IMG/VR virus record: IMGVR_UViG_3300018080_000002
Span: 1 to 64,000 of that record
DNA: 64,000 bases
From: a virus
Direction: 5' to 3' (one strand)
Shown here: positions 3,680 through 63,844 of the stretch, in pieces
How the letters are laid out: every line of letters starts with the position of its first letter
Numbering within the stretch: position 1 is the first letter of the stretch
Notes under the pieces: model-generated
The model's input: the letters and a program-made list of their open reading frames with translations, nothing else
Database searches by the model: none
Told to the model about the DNA's origin: nothing
Program-made: the position numbers and the translations under genes

Positions 3680-4084
3680 ATGAGATTATGGAGAAATACC
3701 AAATGCTGTTTATGCGGTACTCCGCATCCTCGTCGATTTCGTGTGAGGGTAGGAGATGTAGACGATCGCATAGACTATTGCTCGGTTTGTCTGAGTGATT
3801 TGTTGTCAATGTCTAACCATAGATGGTTGCATTTTGAGCGTTTAGCTCTATCTCGGATCAAGGATGAATTACAGAAAGTAATGTTTTTAACTTTGCCTGC
3901 TGATAGCAGGAGGATTTTAGTTTTAGCTATGATGGAAACGGGCATGTTGCCCAGAGAACCAACTTTAGATAAGGATGGAATAAATGTTAGACAAAGAAAA
4001 ATTAGAGCAAGATCTAAACTTGAACGATTTAATAAAAAACAAAATTTTGGAGGACAAAAACAAGTTCACCGAAAGAGTTTATGA
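3680..4084 (+). CDS. zinc-finger protein
   Basis: 134 aa from ATG 3680, which has AAGAGG 7 nt upstream. Residues 8-34 carry CCLC and CSVC pairs 20 residues apart, a zinc-ribbon layout. The C-terminal 34 residues are basic and overlap the next gene by 101 nt, so the true C-terminus function is uncertain. Confidence 0.6.
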   Translation: MRLWRNTKCCLCGTPHPRRFRVRVGDVDDRIDYCSVCLSDLLSMSNHRWLHFERLALSRIKDELQKVMFLTLPADSRRILVLAMMETGMLPREPTLDKDGINVRQRKIRARSKLERFNKKQNFGGQKQVHRKSL

Positions 4085-5534: not shown

Positions 5535-6032
5535 ATGTTAGTTAGATTACTATTTTTATCATTATTGATGTTTGGGTGTGGTGAGGAATGGGATGGTCGT
5601 GGTGATGATCAGGTCACGGTTGAGGCTCCTCCTGGAGAACGCGGTCCTGCTGGTCCTATTGGGGAAGATGGAGAGCCTGGAGAGCCGGGGGAACCTGGAG
5701 AACCCGGTCAGCCTGGAGAGCCAGGAGAGGCTCCTAAAGGCTGTTGTGCGGAGGATTTGGGAGATAGGATCAAAATCACCTGTGATTATGGAGATCCGAT
5801 CGAAATTCCAAAGCCTACTGAGTTTAAGTTGAAAGTTTGCGTTTGGGTAAGTGCGTTAGATGTTGAGACGATGGAGTTAGGCGTACAGGATATTAACGGT
5901 GGGAATTTTGATATCCTACATTTAGGTCAGTGCAGGAACGATAAGGATTATAAGAATCCTAGAACCAATGTTAGTCCTGCTGCTCAAAGACCAGTGGAAA
6001 CTAGAAATCAAAACGATGGAGGAACACAATGA
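5535..6032 (+). CDS. collagen-like lipoprotein
   Basis: 165 aa from ATG 5535 (GGAGGT 8 nt upstream). It has a lipoprotein signal ending LLMFGC (Cys 14), then 13 consecutive or near-consecutive Gly-X-Y triplets at residues 32-70 (GEPGEPGEPG core), then a Cys-containing globular domain. Collagen triplets in phage proteins form trimeric stalks; with a lipobox the stalk would sit on the membrane rather than the tail. It overlaps the following exported protein by ATGA, so they may act together. Confidence 0.75.
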   Translation: MLVRLLFLSLLMFGCGEEWDGRGDDQVTVEAPPGERGPAGPIGEDGEPGEPGEPGEPGQPGEPGEAPKGCCAEDLGDRIKITCDYGDPIEIPKPTEFKLKVCVWVSALDVETMELGVQDINGGNFDILHLGQCRNDKDYKNPRTNVSPAAQRPVETRNQNDGGTQ

Positions 6033-57578: not shown

Positions 57579-57607
57579 TTGACTCCAATTTGCTTATCGA
57601 TTACAAG
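57579..57607 (+). promoter_or_regulatory. promoter for the RNA array
   Basis: TTGACT (57579-57584), 17 nt, TACAAG (57602-57607). -10-like sequences also sit 3-8 nt before some individual units (TAGTAT, TAAAAT, GATAAT), so separate promoters are possible. Confidence 0.45.
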
Positions 57608-57613
57608 GGTATG

Positions 57614-57702
57614 GTCTATTGAACTTGTAGGACAATGGACGACTGGTATCTGAATGACACAGCTTCGAGAGTTTCACTCTTTTTTTGTCATTTAGATGCC
57701 AG
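57614..57702 (+). ncRNA. two-hairpin RNA at the head of the Y RNA array
   Basis: GTCTATTG pairs with CAATGGAC (57614-57640) and a 17-bp hairpin joins 57643-57659 to 57686-57702 (all positions paired, some as G-U). It lacks the conserved Y RNA loop sequences of the units downstream. Function unknown. Confidence 0.5.
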
Positions 57703-57755
57703 CCTGCTTGTGTTTTGATGTTTGATGTATTGCGTACTTAAAACCGTTCAAAAAC

Positions 57756-57825
57756 GGTAGCGAGATGTAAGTGAGGGCTACTTCGGCCATTATGAAATTC
57801 CCCTTGCTGATTTGTTTCCGCTATC
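57756..57825 (+). ncRNA. Y RNA-like RNA, unit 1 (plain hairpin type)
   Basis: 70 nt. Closing helix GGTAGCG/CGCTATC (57756-57762 with 57819-57825), conserved 5' loop strand GAGATGTAAG, inner helix GTGAGGG/CCCCTTGC, and conserved 3' strand TGATTTGTTTCC. No tRNA-like insert; the apex is a short loop. This is the minimal Ro60-binding Y RNA shape, matching the other four units in layout. Confidence 0.65.
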
Positions 57826-57838
57826 ATAGTATTTGTAC

Positions 57839-57950
57839 TGACGAGATGTATGTGAGAGTTACTTCGTAAGTTCGACTCTTATCCCTCCCTCCATTCCATT
57901 ACGGGGGGGTTGTCCAGTGGGGACATTTCTCTTACAGTCTGTTTCCGTCA
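57839..57950 (+). ncRNA. Y RNA-like RNA, unit 2, with permuted tRNA-like domain
   Basis: Closing helix TGACG/CGTCA. Inner helix GTGAGAG with CTCTTAC. The insert is tRNA-like in permuted order: T arm first (GTAAG-TTCGACT-CTTAT, 57866-57882), then the acceptor 3' strand CCCTCCC, a connecting loop, the acceptor 5' strand GGGGGGG, then D arm GTCC-AGTGG-GGAC (57912-57924). The acceptor stem is thus closed by a loop and the anticodon arm is replaced by the Ro60-binding helix. Bacterial Y RNAs are known to carry tRNA-like domains. Confidence 0.75.
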
Positions 57951-57966
57951 TCAATCAGGTAAAATT

Positions 57967-58078
57967 TGCAGAGTAGTGTAGGTTAGAGATACTTCGTGTA
58001 ATGGTTACACATCTGACTCGAAATCGGACGTAGCGGTTCAAATCCGCAGTTTTCCTCTTACTGATTGTTCTCTCTGCA
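57967..58078 (+). ncRNA. Y RNA-like RNA, unit 3, with tRNA-like domain in normal order
   Basis: Closing helix TGCAGAG/CTCTGCA. The insert has D arm GTGT-AATGGTT-ACAC, anticodon arm TCTGA-CTCGAAA-TCGGA (anticodon CGA at 58019-58021) and T arm GCGG-TTCAAAT-CCGC. The acceptor stem is not convincingly paired, so it is tRNA-like rather than a working tRNA. Confidence 0.7.
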
Positions 58079-58093
58079 TTAACGATATTTGAT

Positions 58094-58229
58094 ATAGGCG
58101 CAGTGTAGATTATGCTTACTTCGCATTGAAAGCGGCGGGTCGTTGGTTCGAGTCCAACTCTGGGGGTTTCCCCAGATAGCTCAGTTGGTAGAGCAGCTTC
58201 GTATGGCATTATTGATTGTTCTCGTCTAT
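58094..58229 (+). ncRNA. Y RNA-like RNA, unit 4, with permuted tRNA-like domain
   Basis: 136 nt. Closing helix ATAGGCG/CGTCTAT. Insert order: anticodon 3' strand, T arm GTTGG-TTCGAGT-CCAAC (58142-58158), acceptor 3' TCTGGGG, 4-nt loop, acceptor 5' CCCCAGA (58170-58176), TA, D arm GCTC-AGTTGGTA-GAGC, anticodon 5' strand. The 7-bp acceptor stem is perfect. This is a textbook circularly permuted tRNA fold fused through its anticodon arm to the Y RNA stem. Confidence 0.8.
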
Positions 58230-58248
58230 ACTAATTTTGCTGATAATG

Positions 58249-58386
58249 AGAGCGTGATGTAGATTATAGACTTCCTTCGCATTTTAGCTCACTTGGTAGA
58301 GCACAAAAGTTAGAATTTTGAGGTAGCGGGTTCAATCCCCGCAAATGTGACCATTAGGTCGGGTCTTATTCGCCTGTTTCCGCTCT
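58249..58386 (+). ncRNA. Y RNA-like RNA, unit 5, with a complete tRNA cloverleaf
   Basis: 138 nt. Closing helix AGAGCG/CGCTCT, conserved 5' GTGATGTAG and 3' CTGTTTCC strands, and a helix AGACTT/GGGTCT leading into a full tRNA cloverleaf (58278-58350) attached by its acceptor end, unlike units 2 and 4. Followed by TTTTA. Confidence 0.7.
58278..58350 (+). tRNA. tRNA cloverleaf inside Y RNA unit 5 (anticodon UAG)
   Basis: Acceptor CGCATTT/AAATGTG (7 bp), D arm GCTC-ACTTGGTA-GAGC, anticodon arm CAAAA-GTTAGAA-TTTTG with UAG at 58311-58313, 5-nt variable loop, T arm GCGGG-TTCAATC-CCCGC, discriminator A. UAG would read CUA (Leu), but the class II variable arm of Leu tRNAs is missing. It may be a mimic or may be cut free; sequence alone cannot tell. 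Confidence 0.6.
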
Positions 58387-58407: not shown

Positions 58408-59127
58408 ATGCTTGTTGTTGATCAGAGTCAGTTTGATAGATTTTTTTCCATCCTAGAAAAACCCGAAAAAGATGAAGTATATTTTGTGTCTCTGTCAGCC
58501 AGAAACAAGTATTTGACTGATGAAGAACGCCAACGCTTTCGCCTTGGCAAAACGGAGATGTTTGGTCGGACCACTATCAAGGATTTTAACGATCTTCCAT
58601 ATATCGTGCGGAAGCTAGAGGGGTTCCTTGGCGCATATCGCACCAGGAGCGGTTTAGAGATCCCTGAGCAAGCGAGAGTGGTTTACATCAATGTCAACCC
58701 ATCCTCAACAATTAAGGCGTATACAGCCTTGACTAAGGATCTTAATGACGCTTTATTTCGTTGTCATCTCGGCACTTGTGATTACTCGATGTTCAAGTCT
58801 ATTGAGCGCAGGATTTTGAATCATGTCCAGAGATCCAGATCTCGGCAGGTTTTCGTAGATATTGATTTTGATAACGTATCGGAAACGCTTGTTAAGGTGT
58901 TTAGAGGTCGTATTAGAGATACCGAGAATTACTTGATACGAACGAAATCAGGTGTTCATGTTTTGATCAAAAAAGAGACTTTAACGAAAGATATCAAGCT
59001 TGGTGTGATCATTGAGAATTTCAATGATGAAGCTAAAACGAGCGGTGGAGAGGTCGAGATAAACCAGAACCAGATGGTTCCTATGCCGGGAACAATGCAA
59101 GCTGGTCATTTGGTTACGATCGAGTAA
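58408..59127 (+). CDS. possible primase-polymerase (AEP)-fold protein
   Basis: 239 aa. Residues 148-155 give VDIDFD, residues 180-188 KSGVHVLI, and the C-terminus MVPMPGTMQAGH. The order D-x-D, S-G-x-H, then P-G-(S/T)...G is that of archaeo-eukaryotic primase-type polymerases (metal Asp pair, nucleotide-binding His, and the end loop). The protein is small and lacks an attached helicase. Its place between the Y RNA array and Ro60 suggests an RNA-linked role, for example end-joining or nucleotide addition. Motif match by eye only. Confidence 0.5.
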   Translation: MLVVDQSQFDRFFSILEKPEKDEVYFVSLSARNKYLTDEERQRFRLGKTEMFGRTTIKDFNDLPYIVRKLEGFLGAYRTRSGLEIPEQARVVYINVNPSSTIKAYTALTKDLNDALFRCHLGTCDYSMFKSIERRILNHVQRSRSRQVFVDIDFDNVSETLVKVFRGRIRDTENYLIRTKSGVHVLIKKETLTKDIKLGVIIENFNDEAKTSGGEVEINQNQMVPMPGTMQAGHLVTIE

Positions 59128-59223: not shown

Positions 59224-60084
59224 ATGTTTAGATTAGCAATCATAGCTTTGTCGTTTTGCCTCTCCTGCTCGATGTTTGCCCGTACAAATGTTAAGACGTT
59301 CATGCCTGAAAATGACTTACATTTAGAGGATGATCTTTTTTCTCTATATGGTACTTCCGAACAAGAATTTTATGACGTTATCGAGGATGCTGAGAGGGTA
59401 TTTGCTCCTATCGTAGAAAGGCTTGGGGGTAGATTGTATATCTATAAAAAGTGGTATGATAGCACTGTTAATGCAATGACTTATAGACAAGGAGATTGGT
59501 GGATCATTGAAATGTATGGTGGTTTGGCTCGTAGACGAGAAATAACTAGAGATGGTTTTAACATGGTTCTTTGTCATGAGTTTGGTCATCAACTTGGAGG
59601 ATTCCCTTTCGTTCAAGATTGGGCTGCGGCTGAAGGTCAATCGGATTATTATGCGACTCATGCGTGTGCTAAACTGCTTTGGGCTAATGACGACAATTCT
59701 TGGACAAGACGCCAAATTCCCGCTTTTCCGAAGGGATTATGTGATAGGACTTGGAAGTCTCAAGCTGATCGTGATCTGTGCTACAGGAGCATGTTAGCGA
59801 GTAAATCGACAAATGATTTGCTGGCTGTTTTGAGTGGAGAGAGGGTTAATTATAATACGCCAGATCGATCTGTGGTTAGACGGACGAATACCAGTTATCC
59901 GAGAACTACTCAGTGTAGGCTGGATACCATGATGGCGGGAAGTGTCTGTGTAGCTCGCTGGAATCATGGAAGAATCCCGTCAACTGAAAGGAGTTCAGTT
60001 TATTATTTGTGTTCTACGGCTAGAGGTTATAGTATGGGGGTTAGACCGCGTTGTTGGTTTGCTCCTAGAATTGGGTTGCATTAG
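59224..60084 (+). CDS. secreted zinc metalloprotease
   Basis: 286 aa. Signal peptide (MFRLAIIALSFCLSCSMFA). Catalytic HEFGHQLGG (zinc His pair and Glu) near residue 118, and a downstream acidic segment EGQSDYYATHACAK that could give the third zinc ligand (gluzincin-like). The C-terminal third is Arg/Ser/Cys-rich and may bind a surface. Would act in the periplasm or outside. AGGAGGG precedes the ATG. Confidence 0.75.
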   Translation: MFRLAIIALSFCLSCSMFARTNVKTFMPENDLHLEDDLFSLYGTSEQEFYDVIEDAERVFAPIVERLGGRLYIYKKWYDSTVNAMTYRQGDWWIIEMYGGLARRREITRDGFNMVLCHEFGHQLGGFPFVQDWAAAEGQSDYYATHACAKLLWANDDNSWTRRQIPAFPKGLCDRTWKSQADRDLCYRSMLASKSTNDLLAVLSGERVNYNTPDRSVVRRTNTSYPRTTQCRLDTMMAGSVCVARWNHGRIPSTERSSVYYLCSTARGYSMGVRPRCWFAPRIGLH

Positions 60085-60295: not shown

Positions 60296-61876
60296 GTGTC
60301 AAGGTTTAATTCAACAGCAACTAAGGGGGTTCAGACTGTAAAAAATCACGGTGGAGCTGATTCGTACAAACTATCCAAGGAAGTAGAATTGTATTCGGTT
60401 GTTTGCAATAGTTTGATAACGGACAAGTATTACGAGAGTGGAGATAGTCAGCTCGCTAGAATCATAGAGTTGGTAAAAGACTGCGATCCAGTTTTTGTCG
60501 CTAACTTGGCATCCTATGCGCGTAACGAAATGAATTTGAGGACGGTTCCTGTGGTCTTGAGTACGTTGTTATGTAGGAATGTGGGTGGATCTGTAGCCAA
60601 AGATGCGGTTTTCAGGACGGTAAAACGTGCTGATGAAATCACTGAGGTTCTTGGTTATTTCGCTCAATTAAACAAAGACAATTGGAAAAAGATTAGCGAA
60701 AAAGGCCATATCAAGACTAAGAAAATGTCGAAATACTCTCACTCTTTAAAGAGAGGTATTGCGAAGGTATTTGAGTCTGGAAGGTTCGATCGATACCAAT
60801 TTTCTAAGTATAACAGGCAACGAGAATTTTCGTTCAAAGATGCTTTGTTTCTTTGCAATCCTAAGCCTCAGAACGATGAGATGGCTGAACTATTCAAGTT
60901 GATTGCGAGTGATGAATTGGGGTCTGCTGATACTTGGGAAGCTAAACAATCGGCTCTAGGTCAGGAGAATAAGGAGAAATCGGAGGATGAGGCGAAGGTA
61001 TCCAAGCTAGAGGTTTGGAAAGAGATGATTGCGAACAAAAAGCTTGGACACATGGCTTTGCTGAGAAACCTCAACAACATCCTTAAATGTAAGCCTGACT
61101 CTGCTTTTATGGATGATGTATGTCGAGAGCTGGTTCGTGGTGCTAAGAAAAGTAAGCAGTTTCCTTTTAGGTACTGGAGTGCCTATAAGACATTACAGAA
61201 AGATCATGGTCATCACTCAGATCCATTTCTGTTTCAGAAAGTATCTGATGCTCTGGAGCAGGCGATTAGGGATAGTATCAAGAGTATGAGTAAGTTTGAT
61301 GGAAATACTTTGATTGCCTGTGACGTTTCGGGATCGATGGTTACACCTGTTTCAGATAAGTCGATCATTCAAAATATCGATATAGGTTTGGTTCTTGGTT
61401 GTTTGTTAAAAAACGTTCAGAAACTAAATACTATTTTAGGTGTTTTCGGTGACGAATTTAAGATCATTACAGGTATCGGTAATGGGGTTTTGGCTGATGT
61501 CAGGAGTTCATTTGACTGGTCTCATAAAGTCGGTTGGTCGACTATGGGATACAAGGTCATTGAATACCTGAACAAAAGAAATTTGGATGTGAATCAGGTT
61601 CTTGTTTTCACTGACTGTCAGGTTTATGGATCTGCTGGAAATGGATACTACAGCAATGGTAATGAGATGGAGAGACAGTGGAGTATTTACAAGAGCAAGC
61701 ATCCTAATGCAAAGCTCTATATGTTCGATCTTTCTGGATATGGAAACGTGCCTCTAAGATTGGACAAAGGCGATGTTATTCATGTCGCTGGCTGGTCCGA
61801 TAGGATCTTTGAGGCGGTTGAGTATCTAAGAAAGGGATCTGATGCAGTAGATATGATTATGAACTATACTAGGTAA
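60296..61876 (+). CDS. rsr: Ro60 (TROVE/vWA) RNA-binding protein
   Basis: 526 aa, GTG start with CGGAGGT 7 nt upstream. The N-terminal TROVE region holds HEAT-like helices (FVANLASYARNEMNLRTVPV, ALFLCNPKP, MALLRNLNNILK, FPFRYWSAYKTL). The C-terminal vWA domain has the MIDAS motif D343-x-S345-x-S347 (ACDVSGSM) and FTDCQVYG (D440). Ro60 is a ring that binds misfolded RNA ends in its hole and Y RNA on its outside, and in bacteria links Y RNA to a nuclease. The Y RNA array 2 kb upstream supplies its partners. Length is close to bacterial Rsr (about 530 aa). tRNA genes follow. Confidence 0.9.
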   Translation: MSRFNSTATKGVQTVKNHGGADSYKLSKEVELYSVVCNSLITDKYYESGDSQLARIIELVKDCDPVFVANLASYARNEMNLRTVPVVLSTLLCRNVGGSVAKDAVFRTVKRADEITEVLGYFAQLNKDNWKKISEKGHIKTKKMSKYSHSLKRGIAKVFESGRFDRYQFSKYNRQREFSFKDALFLCNPKPQNDEMAELFKLIASDELGSADTWEAKQSALGQENKEKSEDEAKVSKLEVWKEMIANKKLGHMALLRNLNNILKCKPDSAFMDDVCRELVRGAKKSKQFPFRYWSAYKTLQKDHGHHSDPFLFQKVSDALEQAIRDSIKSMSKFDGNTLIACDVSGSMVTPVSDKSIIQNIDIGLVLGCLLKNVQKLNTILGVFGDEFKIITGIGNGVLADVRSSFDWSHKVGWSTMGYKVIEYLNKRNLDVNQVLVFTDCQVYGSAGNGYYSNGNEMERQWSIYKSKHPNAKLYMFDLSGYGNVPLRLDKGDVIHVAGWSDRIFEAVEYLRKGSDAVDMIMNYTR

Positions 61877-61916
61877 ATATAGCGACGATGTTAGAACATA
61901 GCATTGTCGCTATTTT

Positions 61917-61992
61917 GGGGTATGGGACTGCAAGGAGTGGTCACTGGCCTGTCACGCCAGAAATCAGGCGGGTTCAATTCCCGCATATCCCG
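61917..61992 (+). tRNA. tRNA-Asp(GUC)
   Basis: Acceptor GGGGTAT/ATATCCC, anticodon arm CTGGC-CTGTCAC-GCCAG, T arm GCGGG-TTCAATT-CCCGC, discriminator G. Confidence 0.85.
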
Positions 61993-61997
61993 TTTAC

Positions 61998-62069
61998 GCG
62001 GCTATAGGACAATGGCTAGTCCATCGGATTTTCAGTCCGGGCATCGGGGTTCGACTCCCCGTAGCCGTA
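61998..62069 (+). tRNA. tRNA-Glu(UUC)
   Basis: Acceptor GCGGCTA/TAGCCGT, D arm GGAC-GTCC, anticodon arm TCGGA-TTTTCAG-TCCGG, T arm CGGGG-TTCGACT-CCCCG. Confidence 0.9.
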
Positions 62070-62134
62070 TTTTGTATGACTGCTTCCGGTTTTTTTACGG
62101 AACCATATGTAGCAACGTTGGGAGAGTAAGGTTT

Positions 62135-62207
62135 GGAAGGGTAACTCAGTTGGTAGAGTGGCATCCTGATAAGGTGCTGGTCGATGGTTCAAGTCCATCC
62201 CTTTCCA
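62135..62207 (+). tRNA. tRNA-Ile(GAU)
   Basis: Acceptor GGAAGGG/CCTTTCC, anticodon arm GCATC-CTGATAA-GGTGC, T arm GATGG-TTCAAGT-CCATC. Confidence 0.9.
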
Positions 62208-62217
62208 CTTGTTTTAG

Positions 62218-62287
62218 GGGGCATCCTGTAGACGAGGTAACGCTCAAGTACGGGGGGATGTTGCGGGTTCGATCCCCGTGTGCTCCA
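62218..62287 (+). tRNA. degenerate tRNA-like gene
   Basis: Acceptor GGGGCAT/GTGCTCC and T arm GCGGG-TTCGATC-CCCGT are good, but no D or anticodon arm with U33 can be built between them; 70 nt. Probably a decayed tRNA or a tRNA mimic. Confidence 0.45.
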
Positions 62288-62296
62288 CTTGAATGA

Positions 62297-62368
62297 TGGG
62301 ATGTAGCTCAGTGGTAGAGCAAGCGGCTGTTAACCGCTAGGTCGCGGGTTCGATCCCCGCTTTCCCAG
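62297..62368 (+). tRNA. tRNA-Asn(GUU)
   Basis: T1 start, D arm GCTC-AGTGGTA-GAGC, anticodon arm AGCGG-CTGTTAA-CCGCT, T arm GCGGG-TTCGATC-CCCGC. One T-T mismatch in the acceptor stem. Confidence 0.85.
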
Positions 62369-62373
62369 CTTAA

Positions 62374-62446
62374 GCAACGGTAGCTCAGTCGGTAGAGCAC
62401 CAGACTGAAAATCTGGGTGTCGTTGGTTCAATTCCAACCCGTTGCA
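62374..62446 (+). tRNA. tRNA-Phe(GAA)
   Basis: Acceptor GCAACGG/CCGTTGC, anticodon arm CCAGA-CTGAAAA-TCTGG, T arm GTTGG-TTCAATT-CCAAC. Confidence 0.95.
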
Positions 62447-62456
62447 CTGGTTTTAA

Positions 62457-62529
62457 GGGTCATTAGTTCAGATGGTAGAACACGACACTTTTAATGTCGG
62501 GGTCGCTGGTTCAAGTCCAGCATGACTCA
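62457..62529 (+). tRNA. tRNA-Lys(UUU)
   Basis: Acceptor GGGTCAT/ATGACTC, anticodon arm CGACA-CTTTTAA-TGTCG, T arm GCTGG-TTCAAGT-CCAGC. Confidence 0.9.
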
Positions 62530-62538
62530 TTTGATTAT

Positions 62539-62611
62539 TGGGGTGTAGAGCAGTTGGTAGCTCAACAGTTTTTGATGCTGTCGGTCGCTGGTTCGAGTCC
62601 AGCCACCCCAG
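62539..62611 (+). tRNA. tRNA-Gln(UUG)
   Basis: Acceptor TGGGGTG/CACCCCA, D arm GAGC-GCTC, anticodon arm ACAGT-TTTTGAT-GCTGT, T arm GCTGG-TTCGAGT-CCAGC. Confidence 0.9.
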
Positions 62612-62730
62612 TTTTTAACTCATATGAGTCGAAAACTGCCCTAAAGTTATCGTTTAAAGACATTTTATGGGTAGTTTAGAGGTTGTTTGGGCTGTTAAAT
62701 ACAAATTGTGAGTATTTAGATGTTTTGTTT

Positions 62731-62804
62731 AGGGGAATAGCTCAGTTGGCTAGAGCGATAGATTCCAAATCTATAGGTCATGGGTTCGATCCCTATTTCC
62801 CCTG
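62731..62804 (+). tRNA. tRNA-Trp(CCA)
   Basis: Acceptor AGGGGAA/TTCCCCT, anticodon arm ATAGA-TTCCAAA-TCTAT, discriminator G. About 120 nt without a gene precede it; nothing seen there. Confidence 0.9.
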
Positions 62805-62863
62805 TTTGATTCGACACCGTTTGTAGGTTTGTCGGTGACTAAGTTTAAAAAACCTGCGCTTAT

Positions 62864-62937
62864 GGTGGGCTTATCTCAGTTGGTAGAGAGACGGGTTGTG
62901 ATCTCGTAGGTCGTGGGTTCGAGTCCCACAGTTCACC
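62864..62937 (+). tRNA. tRNA-His(GUG)
   Basis: Acceptor GTGGGCT/AGTTCAC with the extra G-1 opposite C73 that marks tRNA-His; anticodon arm ACGGG-TTGTGAT-CTCGT. Confidence 0.9.
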
Positions 62938-62948
62938 CTTTTTTATAT

Positions 62949-63022
62949 CGGGGTATAGCGCAGTCAGGTAGCGCACTTGCTTTGGGAGCAAGTGGTCATC
63001 CGTTCAAATCGGATTACCCCGA
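62949..63022 (+). tRNA. tRNA-Pro(UGG)
   Basis: Acceptor CGGGGTA/TACCCCG, anticodon arm CTTGC-TTTGGGA-GCAAG, T arm ATCCG-TTCAAAT-CGGAT. Confidence 0.95.
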
Positions 63023-63037
63023 CCATAAGATTGCTAC

Positions 63038-63103
63038 AGGCGTTGAAAGATCATTAATTTTTAGCCGACGACAGAGTGCTGAGATCCTTTGACGCCTTTT
63101 TAT
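63038..63103 (+). terminator. long-stem RNA hairpin ending in U-run
   Basis: 15-nt arms 63038-63052 and 63083-63097 pair at 14 positions (some G-U) around a 30-nt loop, then TTTATT. A terminator for the first tRNA block or a small RNA. Confidence 0.6.
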
Positions 63104-63229
63104 TGACATTCATTTTTACCAATGAGAAACTTGAATTTTAGGCTTTGTGTCTATTTATCTTTATTTTAGGCTTATGTATATGTTTTTAAGTTTGTACTCA
63201 AGTTTATATCTATCCTTACTCTATAAGAG

Positions 63230-63310
63230 TCAGGGGGTTGGTATGGTTTGATACGCTTATAGCATTGCATGAAAAACCCCTGATGTCTTAACCGATTTCA
63301 GGGGTTTTTT
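63230..63310 (+). promoter_or_regulatory. terminator with competing antiterminator before tRNA-Tyr
   Basis: Terminator: AAAACCCCTGA with TTCAGGGGTTTTTT (63272-63310). An earlier TCAGGGGGTT (63230-63239) can pair with the same AACCCCTGA arm and would prevent it. 63104-63229 is AT-rich with TTTTAGGCTT twice and no gene. Confidence 0.55.
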
Positions 63311-63317
63311 GATTTTT

Positions 63318-63408
63318 GGGGGAGCTGCGAAGATTGGCTGGTTTCGCATCGGATTGTAAATCCGGTCCCACAGGGTAAACGTTGTAGGTTCGAGTCCTAC
63401 CTCCCTCA
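63318..63408 (+). tRNA. tRNA-Tyr(GUA)
   Basis: Class II. Acceptor GGGGGAG/CTCCCTC, anticodon arm TCGGA-TTGTAAA-TCCGG, variable-arm hairpin CCC-ACA-GGG, T arm GTAGG-TTCGAGT-CCTAC. Confidence 0.9.
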
Positions 63409-63413
63409 CTTAT

Positions 63414-63487
63414 GGCTCAGTATCCCAATTGGTAGAGGAAGCTGGCTTAGACCCAGTTGGTTGTCAGTTCGAGTCTGACCTGAGCTA
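63414..63487 (+). tRNA. tRNA with anticodon UAG (Leu), short variable loop
   Basis: Acceptor GGCTCAG/CTGAGCT, anticodon arm GCTGG-CTTAGAC-CCAGT, variable loop only 5 nt, T arm GTCAG-TTCGAGT-CTGAC, A73. Bacterial Leu tRNAs normally have a long variable arm. Confidence 0.85.
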
Positions 63488-63497
63488 CTTGTTTTTT

Positions 63498-63572
63498 GGT
63501 CCCGTAGCCCAACTTGGTAGAGGCAATGGATTTAAAATCCATGAGTTATCAGTTCAAATCTGATCGGGACTA
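63498..63572 (+). tRNA. tRNA with anticodon UAA (Leu), short variable loop
   Basis: Acceptor GGTCCCG/CGGGACT, anticodon arm ATGGA-TTTAAAA-TCCAT, 5-nt variable loop, T arm ATCAG-TTCAAAT-CTGAT, A73. Shares the G1-U72 pair and D-arm style of the preceding tRNA. Confidence 0.85.
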
Positions 63573-63576
63573 CTCT

Positions 63577-63660
63577 GGAGGGATGGCCGAATGGTAAGGC
63601 TCTGGATTTGAAATCCAGTGGCGGGTAAAACCGATGGGGGTTCGATTCCCTCTCCCTCTG
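63577..63660 (+). tRNA. tRNA-Ser(UGA)
   Basis: Class II. Acceptor GGAGGGA/TCCCTCT, anticodon arm CTGGA-TTTGAAA-TCCAG, long variable arm, discriminator G. Confidence 0.9.
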
Positions 63661-63669
63661 CTTTTCTTT

Positions 63670-63755
63670 GGAGAGTTGCCCGAATGGTTAAGGGAGCACA
63701 TTGCTAATGTGTCGGTCTGAAATATGATCTCAGGGTTCGAGTCCCTGACTCTCCG
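63670..63755 (+). tRNA. tRNA-Ser(GCU)
   Basis: Class II. Acceptor GGAGAGT/ACTCTCC, anticodon arm GCACA-TTGCTAA-TGTGT, long variable arm, discriminator G. Confidence 0.9.
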
Positions 63756-63844
63756 TTTTTCTTCAAGTCTTTATTCAATTGATACAATTGCTGAAATGGA
63801 GGATAATGACAAAAAAGAATTTATGTCCAAATTGAGAGATAATA

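What the first reader, a model, noticed from the sequence alone, without database searches (positions are those of the whole stretch)
57756..58386. Array of five Y RNA-like RNAs close to a phage Ro60 gene
Five units share one plan. The closing helices differ in sequence yet stay complementary (GGTAGCG/CGCTATC, TGACG/CGTCA, TGCAGAG/CTCTGCA, ATAGGCG/CGTCTAT, AGAGCG/CGCTCT), which is covariation within one genome. Loop strands are conserved: 5' (A/G)TGTA(A/G/T)(G/A)T and 3' TG(A)TTGTT(C/T)(C/T)C. Ro60 lies 2 kb downstream. Y RNAs near Ro60 are known in bacteria and some phages, but usually one or two; five in tandem with different inserts looks like an expanded system.
Basis: partly seen in the sequence, partly recalled or inferred. 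Interest (0 to 1): 0.92.

Follow-up and report, generated by a model that had tools for sequence, protein, structure and literature searches.

The report
Phage Y RNA array mimicking tRNAs
A phage carries five small RNA genes in a row, close to its Ro60 gene, each built as a Ro60-type handle holding a different cargo (no cargo, a scrambled tRNA, or an ordinary-order tRNA with its anticodon); such arrays turn out to be common beside Ro60 genes, but the cargoes that look like whole tRNAs are rare and make the unknown job of phage Ro60 testable.

Summary
Five Y RNA-like units lie at 57756-58386, 1.9 kb upstream of a TROVE/Ro60 gene (60296-61876). Arms defined by loop motifs alone pair 29/30 with their own partner; only 1 of 120 re-pairings does as well. 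Covariance models trained only on units from other phages recover all five with the right ends (E from 3e-30 to 2e-4).

U1 has no cargo. U2 and U4 carry circularly permuted tRNAs (T arm, acceptor hairpin, D arm; U4 also an anticodon arm, UGA), the YrlA plan. U3 and U5 carry tRNAs in normal order (anticodons CGA and UAG; U5 has a complete acceptor stem and ACCA). All share a UACUUC-type strand.

The number five is not exceptional: arrays are the rule beside Ro60 in the phages (CcrColossus 8, Xanthomonas phage Olaya 5) and Bacteroidota sampled. Y RNAs near Ro60 and their tRNA mimicry are known. What looks new is the heterogeneous cargo: anticodon-bearing permuted tRNAs, and rare whole tRNAs in normal order. 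Most likely function: Ro60-bound tRNA mimics that tether or decoy tRNA-binding enzymes. Expression and binding are untested.

The parts
57756..57825 (+). U1: Y RNA unit without tRNA cargo (outer helix GGTAGCG/CGCTATC, loop AGATGTA, inner helix, TACTTC, short hairpin)
   Evidence: R2 37.1 bits, 2.8e-8; fold z -2.7
57839..57950 (+). U2: Y RNA unit with a circularly permuted tRNA lacking an anticodon arm: T arm 57866-57882, acceptor hairpin 57883-57909, D arm 57911-57925
   Evidence: R1 46.4 bits, 1.5e-12; R2 29.6 bits, 4.1e-6; fold
57967..58078 (+). U3: Y RNA unit with a linear tRNA-like cargo: D arm 57996-58010, anticodon arm 58012-58028 (CGA), T arm 58033-58047; the Y inner helix stands in for the acceptor stem
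   Evidence: ARAGORN tRNA-Ser(cga) 57986-58057; Rfam tRNA 35.7 bits; R1 37.3 bits; R2 41.9 bits, 1.1e-9
58092..58231 (+). U4: Y RNA unit with a circularly permuted tRNA including an anticodon arm: anticodon arm about 58120-58135 (UGA), T arm 58142-58158, acceptor hairpin 58159-58176, D arm 58179-58194
   Evidence: R1 102.4 bits, 3.3e-30; Rfam YrlA 39.4 bits, below its cut-off of 69; ARAGORN on the circularised cargo gives tRNA-Ser(tga)
58249..58386 (+). U5: Y RNA unit with a complete linear tRNA cargo (58278-58353, anticodon UAG, 7-bp acceptor stem, encoded ACCA 58350-58353); motif variant TCCTTC
   Evidence: ARAGORN tRNA-Leu(tag); Rfam tRNA 59.7 bits; R1 20.6 bits, 2e-4
58408..59127 (+). ORF of 239 aa, function unknown, between array and Ro60
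   Evidence: no Pfam family
59224..60084 (+). ORF of 286 aa with N-terminal signal-like stretch and HEFGH (HExxH) motif, between array and Ro60
   Evidence: read from the translation; no significant Pfam family
60296..61876 (+). Ro60/TROVE protein, 526 aa, metal-site motif DVSGSM kept
   Evidence: Pfam TROVE 5.8e-18; phrog_850 6e-42; PDB 9l5y/9kop 4.8e-30, 1yvp 1.2e-11
61916..63756 (+). cluster of 15 ordinary tRNA genes just downstream of Ro60

Best explanation
The array encodes five Y RNAs for the phage's own Ro60. In each, the outer helix plus the conserved asymmetric internal loop (5' (A/T/C)(A/G)(A/G)(T/C)GTA, 3' about GATTGTT(C/T)(C/T)) is the handle that binds the outside of the Ro60 ring, and the distal part is a payload. 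Four payloads are tRNA mimics: two circularly permuted tRNAs (U2, U4) and two tRNAs in normal order (U3, U5); U1 is handle only. Bound to Ro60, the payloads present tRNA-shaped surfaces that tether or compete for tRNA-binding enzymes (PNPase, tRNA-modifying enzymes, or host tRNA nucleases), so that one Ro60 can form several different particles. Shown here: the units, their conserved core, covariation, linkage to Ro60, tRNA-like payloads and topologies. Inferred from published bacterial systems: Ro60 binding, gating or tethering, and any decoy role. The confidence below is for the identity as Ro60-linked Y RNAs with tRNA-mimic payloads; for tethering or competition with a tRNA enzyme as the function I would put about 0.6.
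For: Own-versus-cross arm pairing in the window 29/30, 1 of 120; over 102 motif-defined units 5.16/6 own against 3.47 cross. Models from other phages find all five, with no R2 hit in the rest of the record. The core motif is enriched about 100-fold next to Ro60 in sense orientation. Compensatory changes in 31 of 34 pairs. Payloads: ARAGORN finds a tRNA in 91 of 132 circularised payloads and in 0 shuffled ones, while linear scanning finds one in 17 of 230 units. Ro60 family and metal motif kept. [quoted passage not shown] the YrlA tRNA-like domain is proposed as a competitive inhibitor of an anticodon nuclease (PMC7790460).
Against: No transcript or binding data. U4 scores below the Rfam YrlA cut-off (39.4 against 69 bits) and the other units do not match that family. 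Single-sequence folding is only modestly better than shuffles. The phage record has no RtcB or RNA_ligase (PF09414) match, so the RNA-repair link of bacterial operons is not seen. U5 departs from the UACUUC motif and is the weakest model hit.
Confidence: 0.83

Rival explanations
1. Decoys against tRNA-cleaving host defences: the anticodon-bearing payloads are a set of bait tRNAs held on Ro60, and the array diversifies to match different host anticodon nucleases. (A specific form of the function left open in the best explanation.)
For: Payloads with anticodon arms are frequent in phages and carry many different anticodons; window units carry UGA, CGA and UAG; the idea is published for YrlA in general (PMC7790460).
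Against: The same arrays stand beside chromosomal rsr genes of Bacteroidota, where a phage-only decoy role does not apply; U1 and U2 have no anticodon arm; YrlA itself was not cut by the nuclease studied (PMC7790460).
Confidence: 0.25
2. Carriers of functional tRNAs: RNase P and 3' processing cut U5 (and perhaps others) to release working tRNAs, the Y helix being a transcriptional wrapper.
For: U5 has a fully paired acceptor stem and ACCA; similar whole tRNAs in Y units occur in L040 and L009, where GenBank annotates ordinary tRNA-Tyr and tRNA-Lys.
Against: U3 has a mismatched acceptor and uses the Y helix instead; Leu and Ser tRNAs of bacteria have long variable arms (established knowledge), which U3 and U5 lack; permuted payloads cannot be released as tRNAs without ligation.
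Confidence: 0.1
3. A cis-acting leader that regulates the Ro60 operon by attenuation or RNase processing.
For: In phages the array is mostly upstream of Ro60, same strand.
Against: In Bacteroidota the arrays are mostly downstream of rsr; in the window two genes lie between array and Ro60; closing helices covary unit by unit.
Confidence: 0.04
4. Degenerate tRNA genes left over from the neighbouring tRNA cluster, with helices seen by chance.
For: 15 tRNAs lie 3.5 kb downstream; model R1 gives partial hits on neighbouring tRNA pairs, because a T arm followed by the next D arm imitates the permuted order.
Against: Outer helices pair best with their own partner; U1 has no tRNA at all; the same core recurs beside Ro60 in most of about 190 loci.
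Confidence: 0.02

Closest known systems
Bacterial YrlA-type Y RNAs (Rfam RF02553; Salmonella, Mycobacterium and others)
   Same: Encoded beside a Ro60 orthologue; closing stem for Ro60; permuted tRNA-like domain (T arm, acceptor hairpin, D arm) as in U2 and U4; UAC after the inner helix and UUGU in the 3' loop
   Different: Below the Rfam cut-off; five units; U4 has an anticodon arm (UGA), U3 and U5 hold tRNAs in normal order, U1 has no tRNA part; conserved UACUUC strand
Y RNA arrays beside Ro60 in Caulobacter phage CcrColossus and Xanthomonas phage Olaya (units found here; genomes public)
   Same: Same core, same tandem layout next to Ro60; permuted tRNA payloads
   Different: 8 and 5 units, directly upstream of Ro60; payloads mostly permuted, no whole linear tRNA like U5 seen
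Bacteroidota chromosomal rsr loci (e.g. L162, L186, L204)
   Same: Ro60 40-42% identical to the window's, arrays of the same core, permuted payloads
   Different: Array mostly downstream of rsr; one linear-tRNA unit found (L194)
Units of phage L040 and gut phage csAssE-Sib (L009)
   Same: Y unit holding a complete tRNA in normal order, like U5
   Different: Other anticodons; those of csAssE-Sib are annotated as ordinary tRNA genes
Highly transcribed RNAs near the Rsr-like gene of Listeria phage CKA15 (PMC12282133)
   Same: Authors propose Y RNAs within 2 kb upstream of an Rsr-like protein
   Different: In the relative P100 the protein is DUF2828/DUF7788 and the units seen lack UACUUC and tRNA parts

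Membership tests
Prokaryotic Y RNA (broad sense) | Encoded close to a Ro60/Rsr gene | tested here: met
   TROVE gene 1.9 kb downstream, same strand
Prokaryotic Y RNA (broad sense) | 5' and 3' ends pair in a stem with a conserved internal loop shared with other Ro60-linked RNAs | tested here: met
Prokaryotic Y RNA (broad sense) | RNA binds Ro60 through that stem | not testable with these tools
   needs a binding assay
Prokaryotic Y RNA (broad sense) | Transcribed as a discrete small RNA | not testable with these tools
   no RNA data for this uncultured phage
YrlA, Rfam RF02553 | Score at or above the family cut-off of 69 bits | tested here: not met
   U4 39.4 bits (model positions 24-84 only); other units no match. 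The phage units matched all fail this cut-off too, so it may be too strict for this class
YrlA, Rfam RF02553 | Permuted tRNA-like domain: T arm, acceptor hairpin, D arm | tested here: met
   U4 and U2 only; U1, U3 and U5 do not have it
Vertebrate Y RNA | Seven-bp helix with single bulged C and 3-nt bulge opposite (PMC4726728) | tested here: not met
   The core here has about 7-nt and 9-10-nt loop strands
Ro60/TROVE protein | TROVE domain above cut-off and vWA metal-site DxSxS | tested here: met
   65.7 bits against 23; D343, S345, S347 invariant in 17 phage proteins
Translating tRNA (U5) | Complete cloverleaf with acceptor stem and CCA | tested here: met
   ARAGORN and Rfam tRNA 59.7 bits, ACCA at 58350-58353
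Translating tRNA (U5) | Leu-type long variable arm; aminoacylation | tested here: inconclusive
   variable loop is short (sequence); charging not testable

The most novel reading that the evidence does not exclude
Phage and Bacteroidota Ro60 loci carry evolving 'cassette' arrays in which one Ro60-binding handle is combined with interchangeable tRNA cargoes (permuted or in normal order, with different anticodons), so that Ro60 acts as a hub displaying a library of bait tRNAs against host tRNA-cleaving defences.
Probability: 0.2. Interest if true: 0.88.

Novelty: new variant of a known kind. Interest (0 to 1): 0.62.

Why it matters
The job of phage-encoded Ro60 is unknown. The array gives a defined set of RNAs with one common handle and five different cargoes, so binding, tethering and decoy models can be tested piece by piece. 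The survey also shows that Rfam's YrlA cut-off misses this class, that arrays are the rule in the loci sampled, and that some annotated phage tRNAs (csAssE-Sib) are parts of Y RNAs.

Tried and rejected
Duplex energies of the arms against long downstream windows did not separate units from shuffles, because a long window always offers some duplex; replaced by geometry-limited scoring and motif-defined arms. A first permutation test was wrong because an extra TGTT site upstream shifted the arms; corrected. Listeria phage P100 was checked as a transcribed relative: its protein is DUF2828/DUF7788 and the TACTTC core is absent. The RNA-repair idea (RtcB, PF09414 RNA ligase) found no gene in this record. 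Hits of R1 on the tRNA cluster 61968-63641 were rejected as artefacts of neighbouring tRNAs. Key papers on bacterial Y RNAs (Chen 2014, Sim and Wolin 2018, Sim 2020) are not held, so whether arrays or anticodon-bearing payloads were described there could not be checked.

Full report
What is in the window. The window is the first 64 kb of a 157,357-base IMG/VR virus record. Head genes are T4-like: Portal_T4 3e-67 and phrog_138 major head protein. After one unnamed metagenomic phage, the nearest major head proteins are those of Flavobacterium phages (32%). The Ro60 protein (60296-61876) matches Pfam TROVE and is about 40-42% identical to the best chromosomal Ro60 hits in Bacteroidota but only about 30% to most phage Ro60s. 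A Bacteroidota host is therefore likely, by inference.

Checking the observation. I read the five units, folded them, and placed the outer arms by the conserved loop motifs alone. Own arms make 29 of 30 pairs; of the 120 possible re-pairings only the true one does, and the mean is 21.0. For the inner helix 2 of 120 re-pairings reach the observed value. Folding z-scores are modest (-1.4 to -2.7), so the strength lies in the conserved plan and the covariation, not in energy.

Relatives. Ro60 loci were taken from annotated phages, from IMG/VR and from bacterial genomes. A strand 'UACUUC', noticed in four units of the window (UCCUUC in the fifth), marks them: GTTACTTC occurs 192 times within 1.5 kb upstream of phage Ro60 in sense, 2 times antisense and 5 times in far flanks; in Bacteroidota 95 times downstream of rsr in sense and 0 antisense. 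With geometry-limited scoring, 53% of upstream TACTTC sites reach a score that 5% reach after shuffling the downstream sequence. The consensus is outer helix, UGGYGUA, inner helix of 8-9 pairs, (U/A)UACUUC, payload, inner helix, GCUUGUUCC, outer helix. Across 102 motif-defined units own arms pair 5.16/6 against 3.47/6 for swapped arms.

Covariance models. R1 (28 permuted-payload units of other phages) has 31 of 34 pairs with compensatory changes. R2 (29 short units) models the core. The training units were chosen partly by complementarity, which favours pairing in the training set, but no window sequence was used. R1 finds U4, U2, U3 and U5, and R2 finds U3, U1 and U2, all with the unit ends given above. 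R2 has no hit in 93 kb of the same record or in the two Listeria P100 stretches. R1 also reports hits on the tRNA cluster downstream of Ro60; these are neighbouring tRNAs whose T and D arms imitate the permuted order. E-values from these short calibrations are rough.

What the units carry. In most phage units with a tRNA part, the order is anticodon arm, T arm, acceptor hairpin, D arm: a tRNA circularly permuted and opened between D arm and anticodon arm. ARAGORN finds a tRNA in 91 of 132 circularised payloads, in none of the shuffled ones, and in only 17 of 230 units read linearly (a few linear payloads are among the 91). In the window U4 is of this kind (UGA), U2 has the same order without an anticodon arm, and U1 has no tRNA part. 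U3 and U5 hold tRNAs in normal order. In U3 the Y inner helix takes the place of the acceptor stem (so UA can be read as U8-A9); U5 holds a complete tRNA with 7 acceptor pairs and ACCA. Whole linear tRNAs in Y units are rare elsewhere: two in phage L040 (CUA; CAG with ACCA), two in gut phage csAssE-Sib (annotated as ordinary tRNA-Tyr and tRNA-Lys), one in a Bacteroidia MAG (L194). In crAss001 two stretches fold or score as the reverse arrangement, a tRNA in normal order with a Y-like arm inserted between D arm and anticodon arm; this is a reading of the sequence, not a tested claim.

How common are arrays? By core motif 78 of 118 phage loci and 57 of 74 Bacteroidota loci hold two or more units, and 7 and 13 hold five or more. 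The motif undercounts: CcrColossus has 5 by motif and 8 by model. So five units is not an expansion of a one- or two-unit system. The loci were found with Ro60 queries close to those at hand, so the frequencies are not those of all Ro60 genes.

Function. [quoted passage not shown] YrlA is also a substrate of DusA and TruB (PMC8394870). Hughes et al. [quoted passage not shown] For phages, a review lists TROVE proteins as RNA-repair platforms with a tRNA-like partner (PMC7824862). In Listeria phage CKA15 an Rsr-like protein sits in virions and three very highly transcribed RNAs lie upstream, with Y RNAs proposed (PMC12282133). The best-supported reading here is a set of Ro60-bound tRNA mimics; which enzyme they address is open. 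The array position differs between phages (mostly upstream) and Bacteroidota (mostly downstream), which speaks against a cis-acting leader.

Known and new. Y RNAs near Ro60 in bacteria and phages, with tRNA mimicry, are known (Chen et al. 2014, cited in PMC12282133 and PMC8394870; its details are from memory, as the paper is not held). I found no held paper describing arrays of this size, the UACUUC strand, anticodon arms in Y RNAs, or whole linear tRNAs inside Y RNAs, but the main reviews are not held, so I rate it 'new variant of a known kind' and no higher.

Noticed in passing
57600-57740: Strong hairpin just upstream of U1 (17-bp stem, fold z -4.6, no shuffle as good), no Rfam match and no second copy in the record; might be a sixth RNA or a terminator.
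   Followed up: partly
L125:984-3929 (record about 83984-86929): T4-like portal gene of 982 aa interrupted by an intein-like insert with LAGLIDADG/homing-endonuclease matches.
   Followed up: partly
L130 reverse strand, 60-350 nt upstream of gp165: Listeria phage P100: three hairpin units with differing but complementary closing helices (AGGAATC/GATTCCT, AGAGAGC/GCTCTCT, AGGAAGC/GCTTCCT) and conserved AACAGCAATTACTA-like strand before a DUF2828/DUF7788 gene; candidates for the abundant RNAs reported for CKA15.
   Followed up: partly
L019:5572-5720 and 5832-5975: crAss001, downstream of Ro60: tRNA in normal order with a Y-like arm inserted between D arm and anticodon arm, the second closed by a GAAG loop; the mirror image of the permuted units.
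   Followed up: partly
L134:5567-5759; also L136, L139, L199: About 190-nt tRNA-like RNA next to rsr in four Bacteroidota, with conserved TTTACAG.TGCACCGAA and GTATTTACAGCCATACTG between D and T arms; no name known to me.
   Followed up: partly
L009:3666-3738 and 3811-3884: tRNA-Tyr and tRNA-Lys annotated in csAssE-Sib are cargoes of Y RNA-like units, so they may be misannotated as ordinary tRNAs.
   Followed up: partly
L008:7760-8015: Rfam permuted tmRNA hit (60.2 bits) near Ro60 of Brevundimonas phage Papperlapapp.
   Followed up: no
59224-60084: Putative exported protein with HEFGH zinc-protease-like motif between array and Ro60.
   Followed up: no
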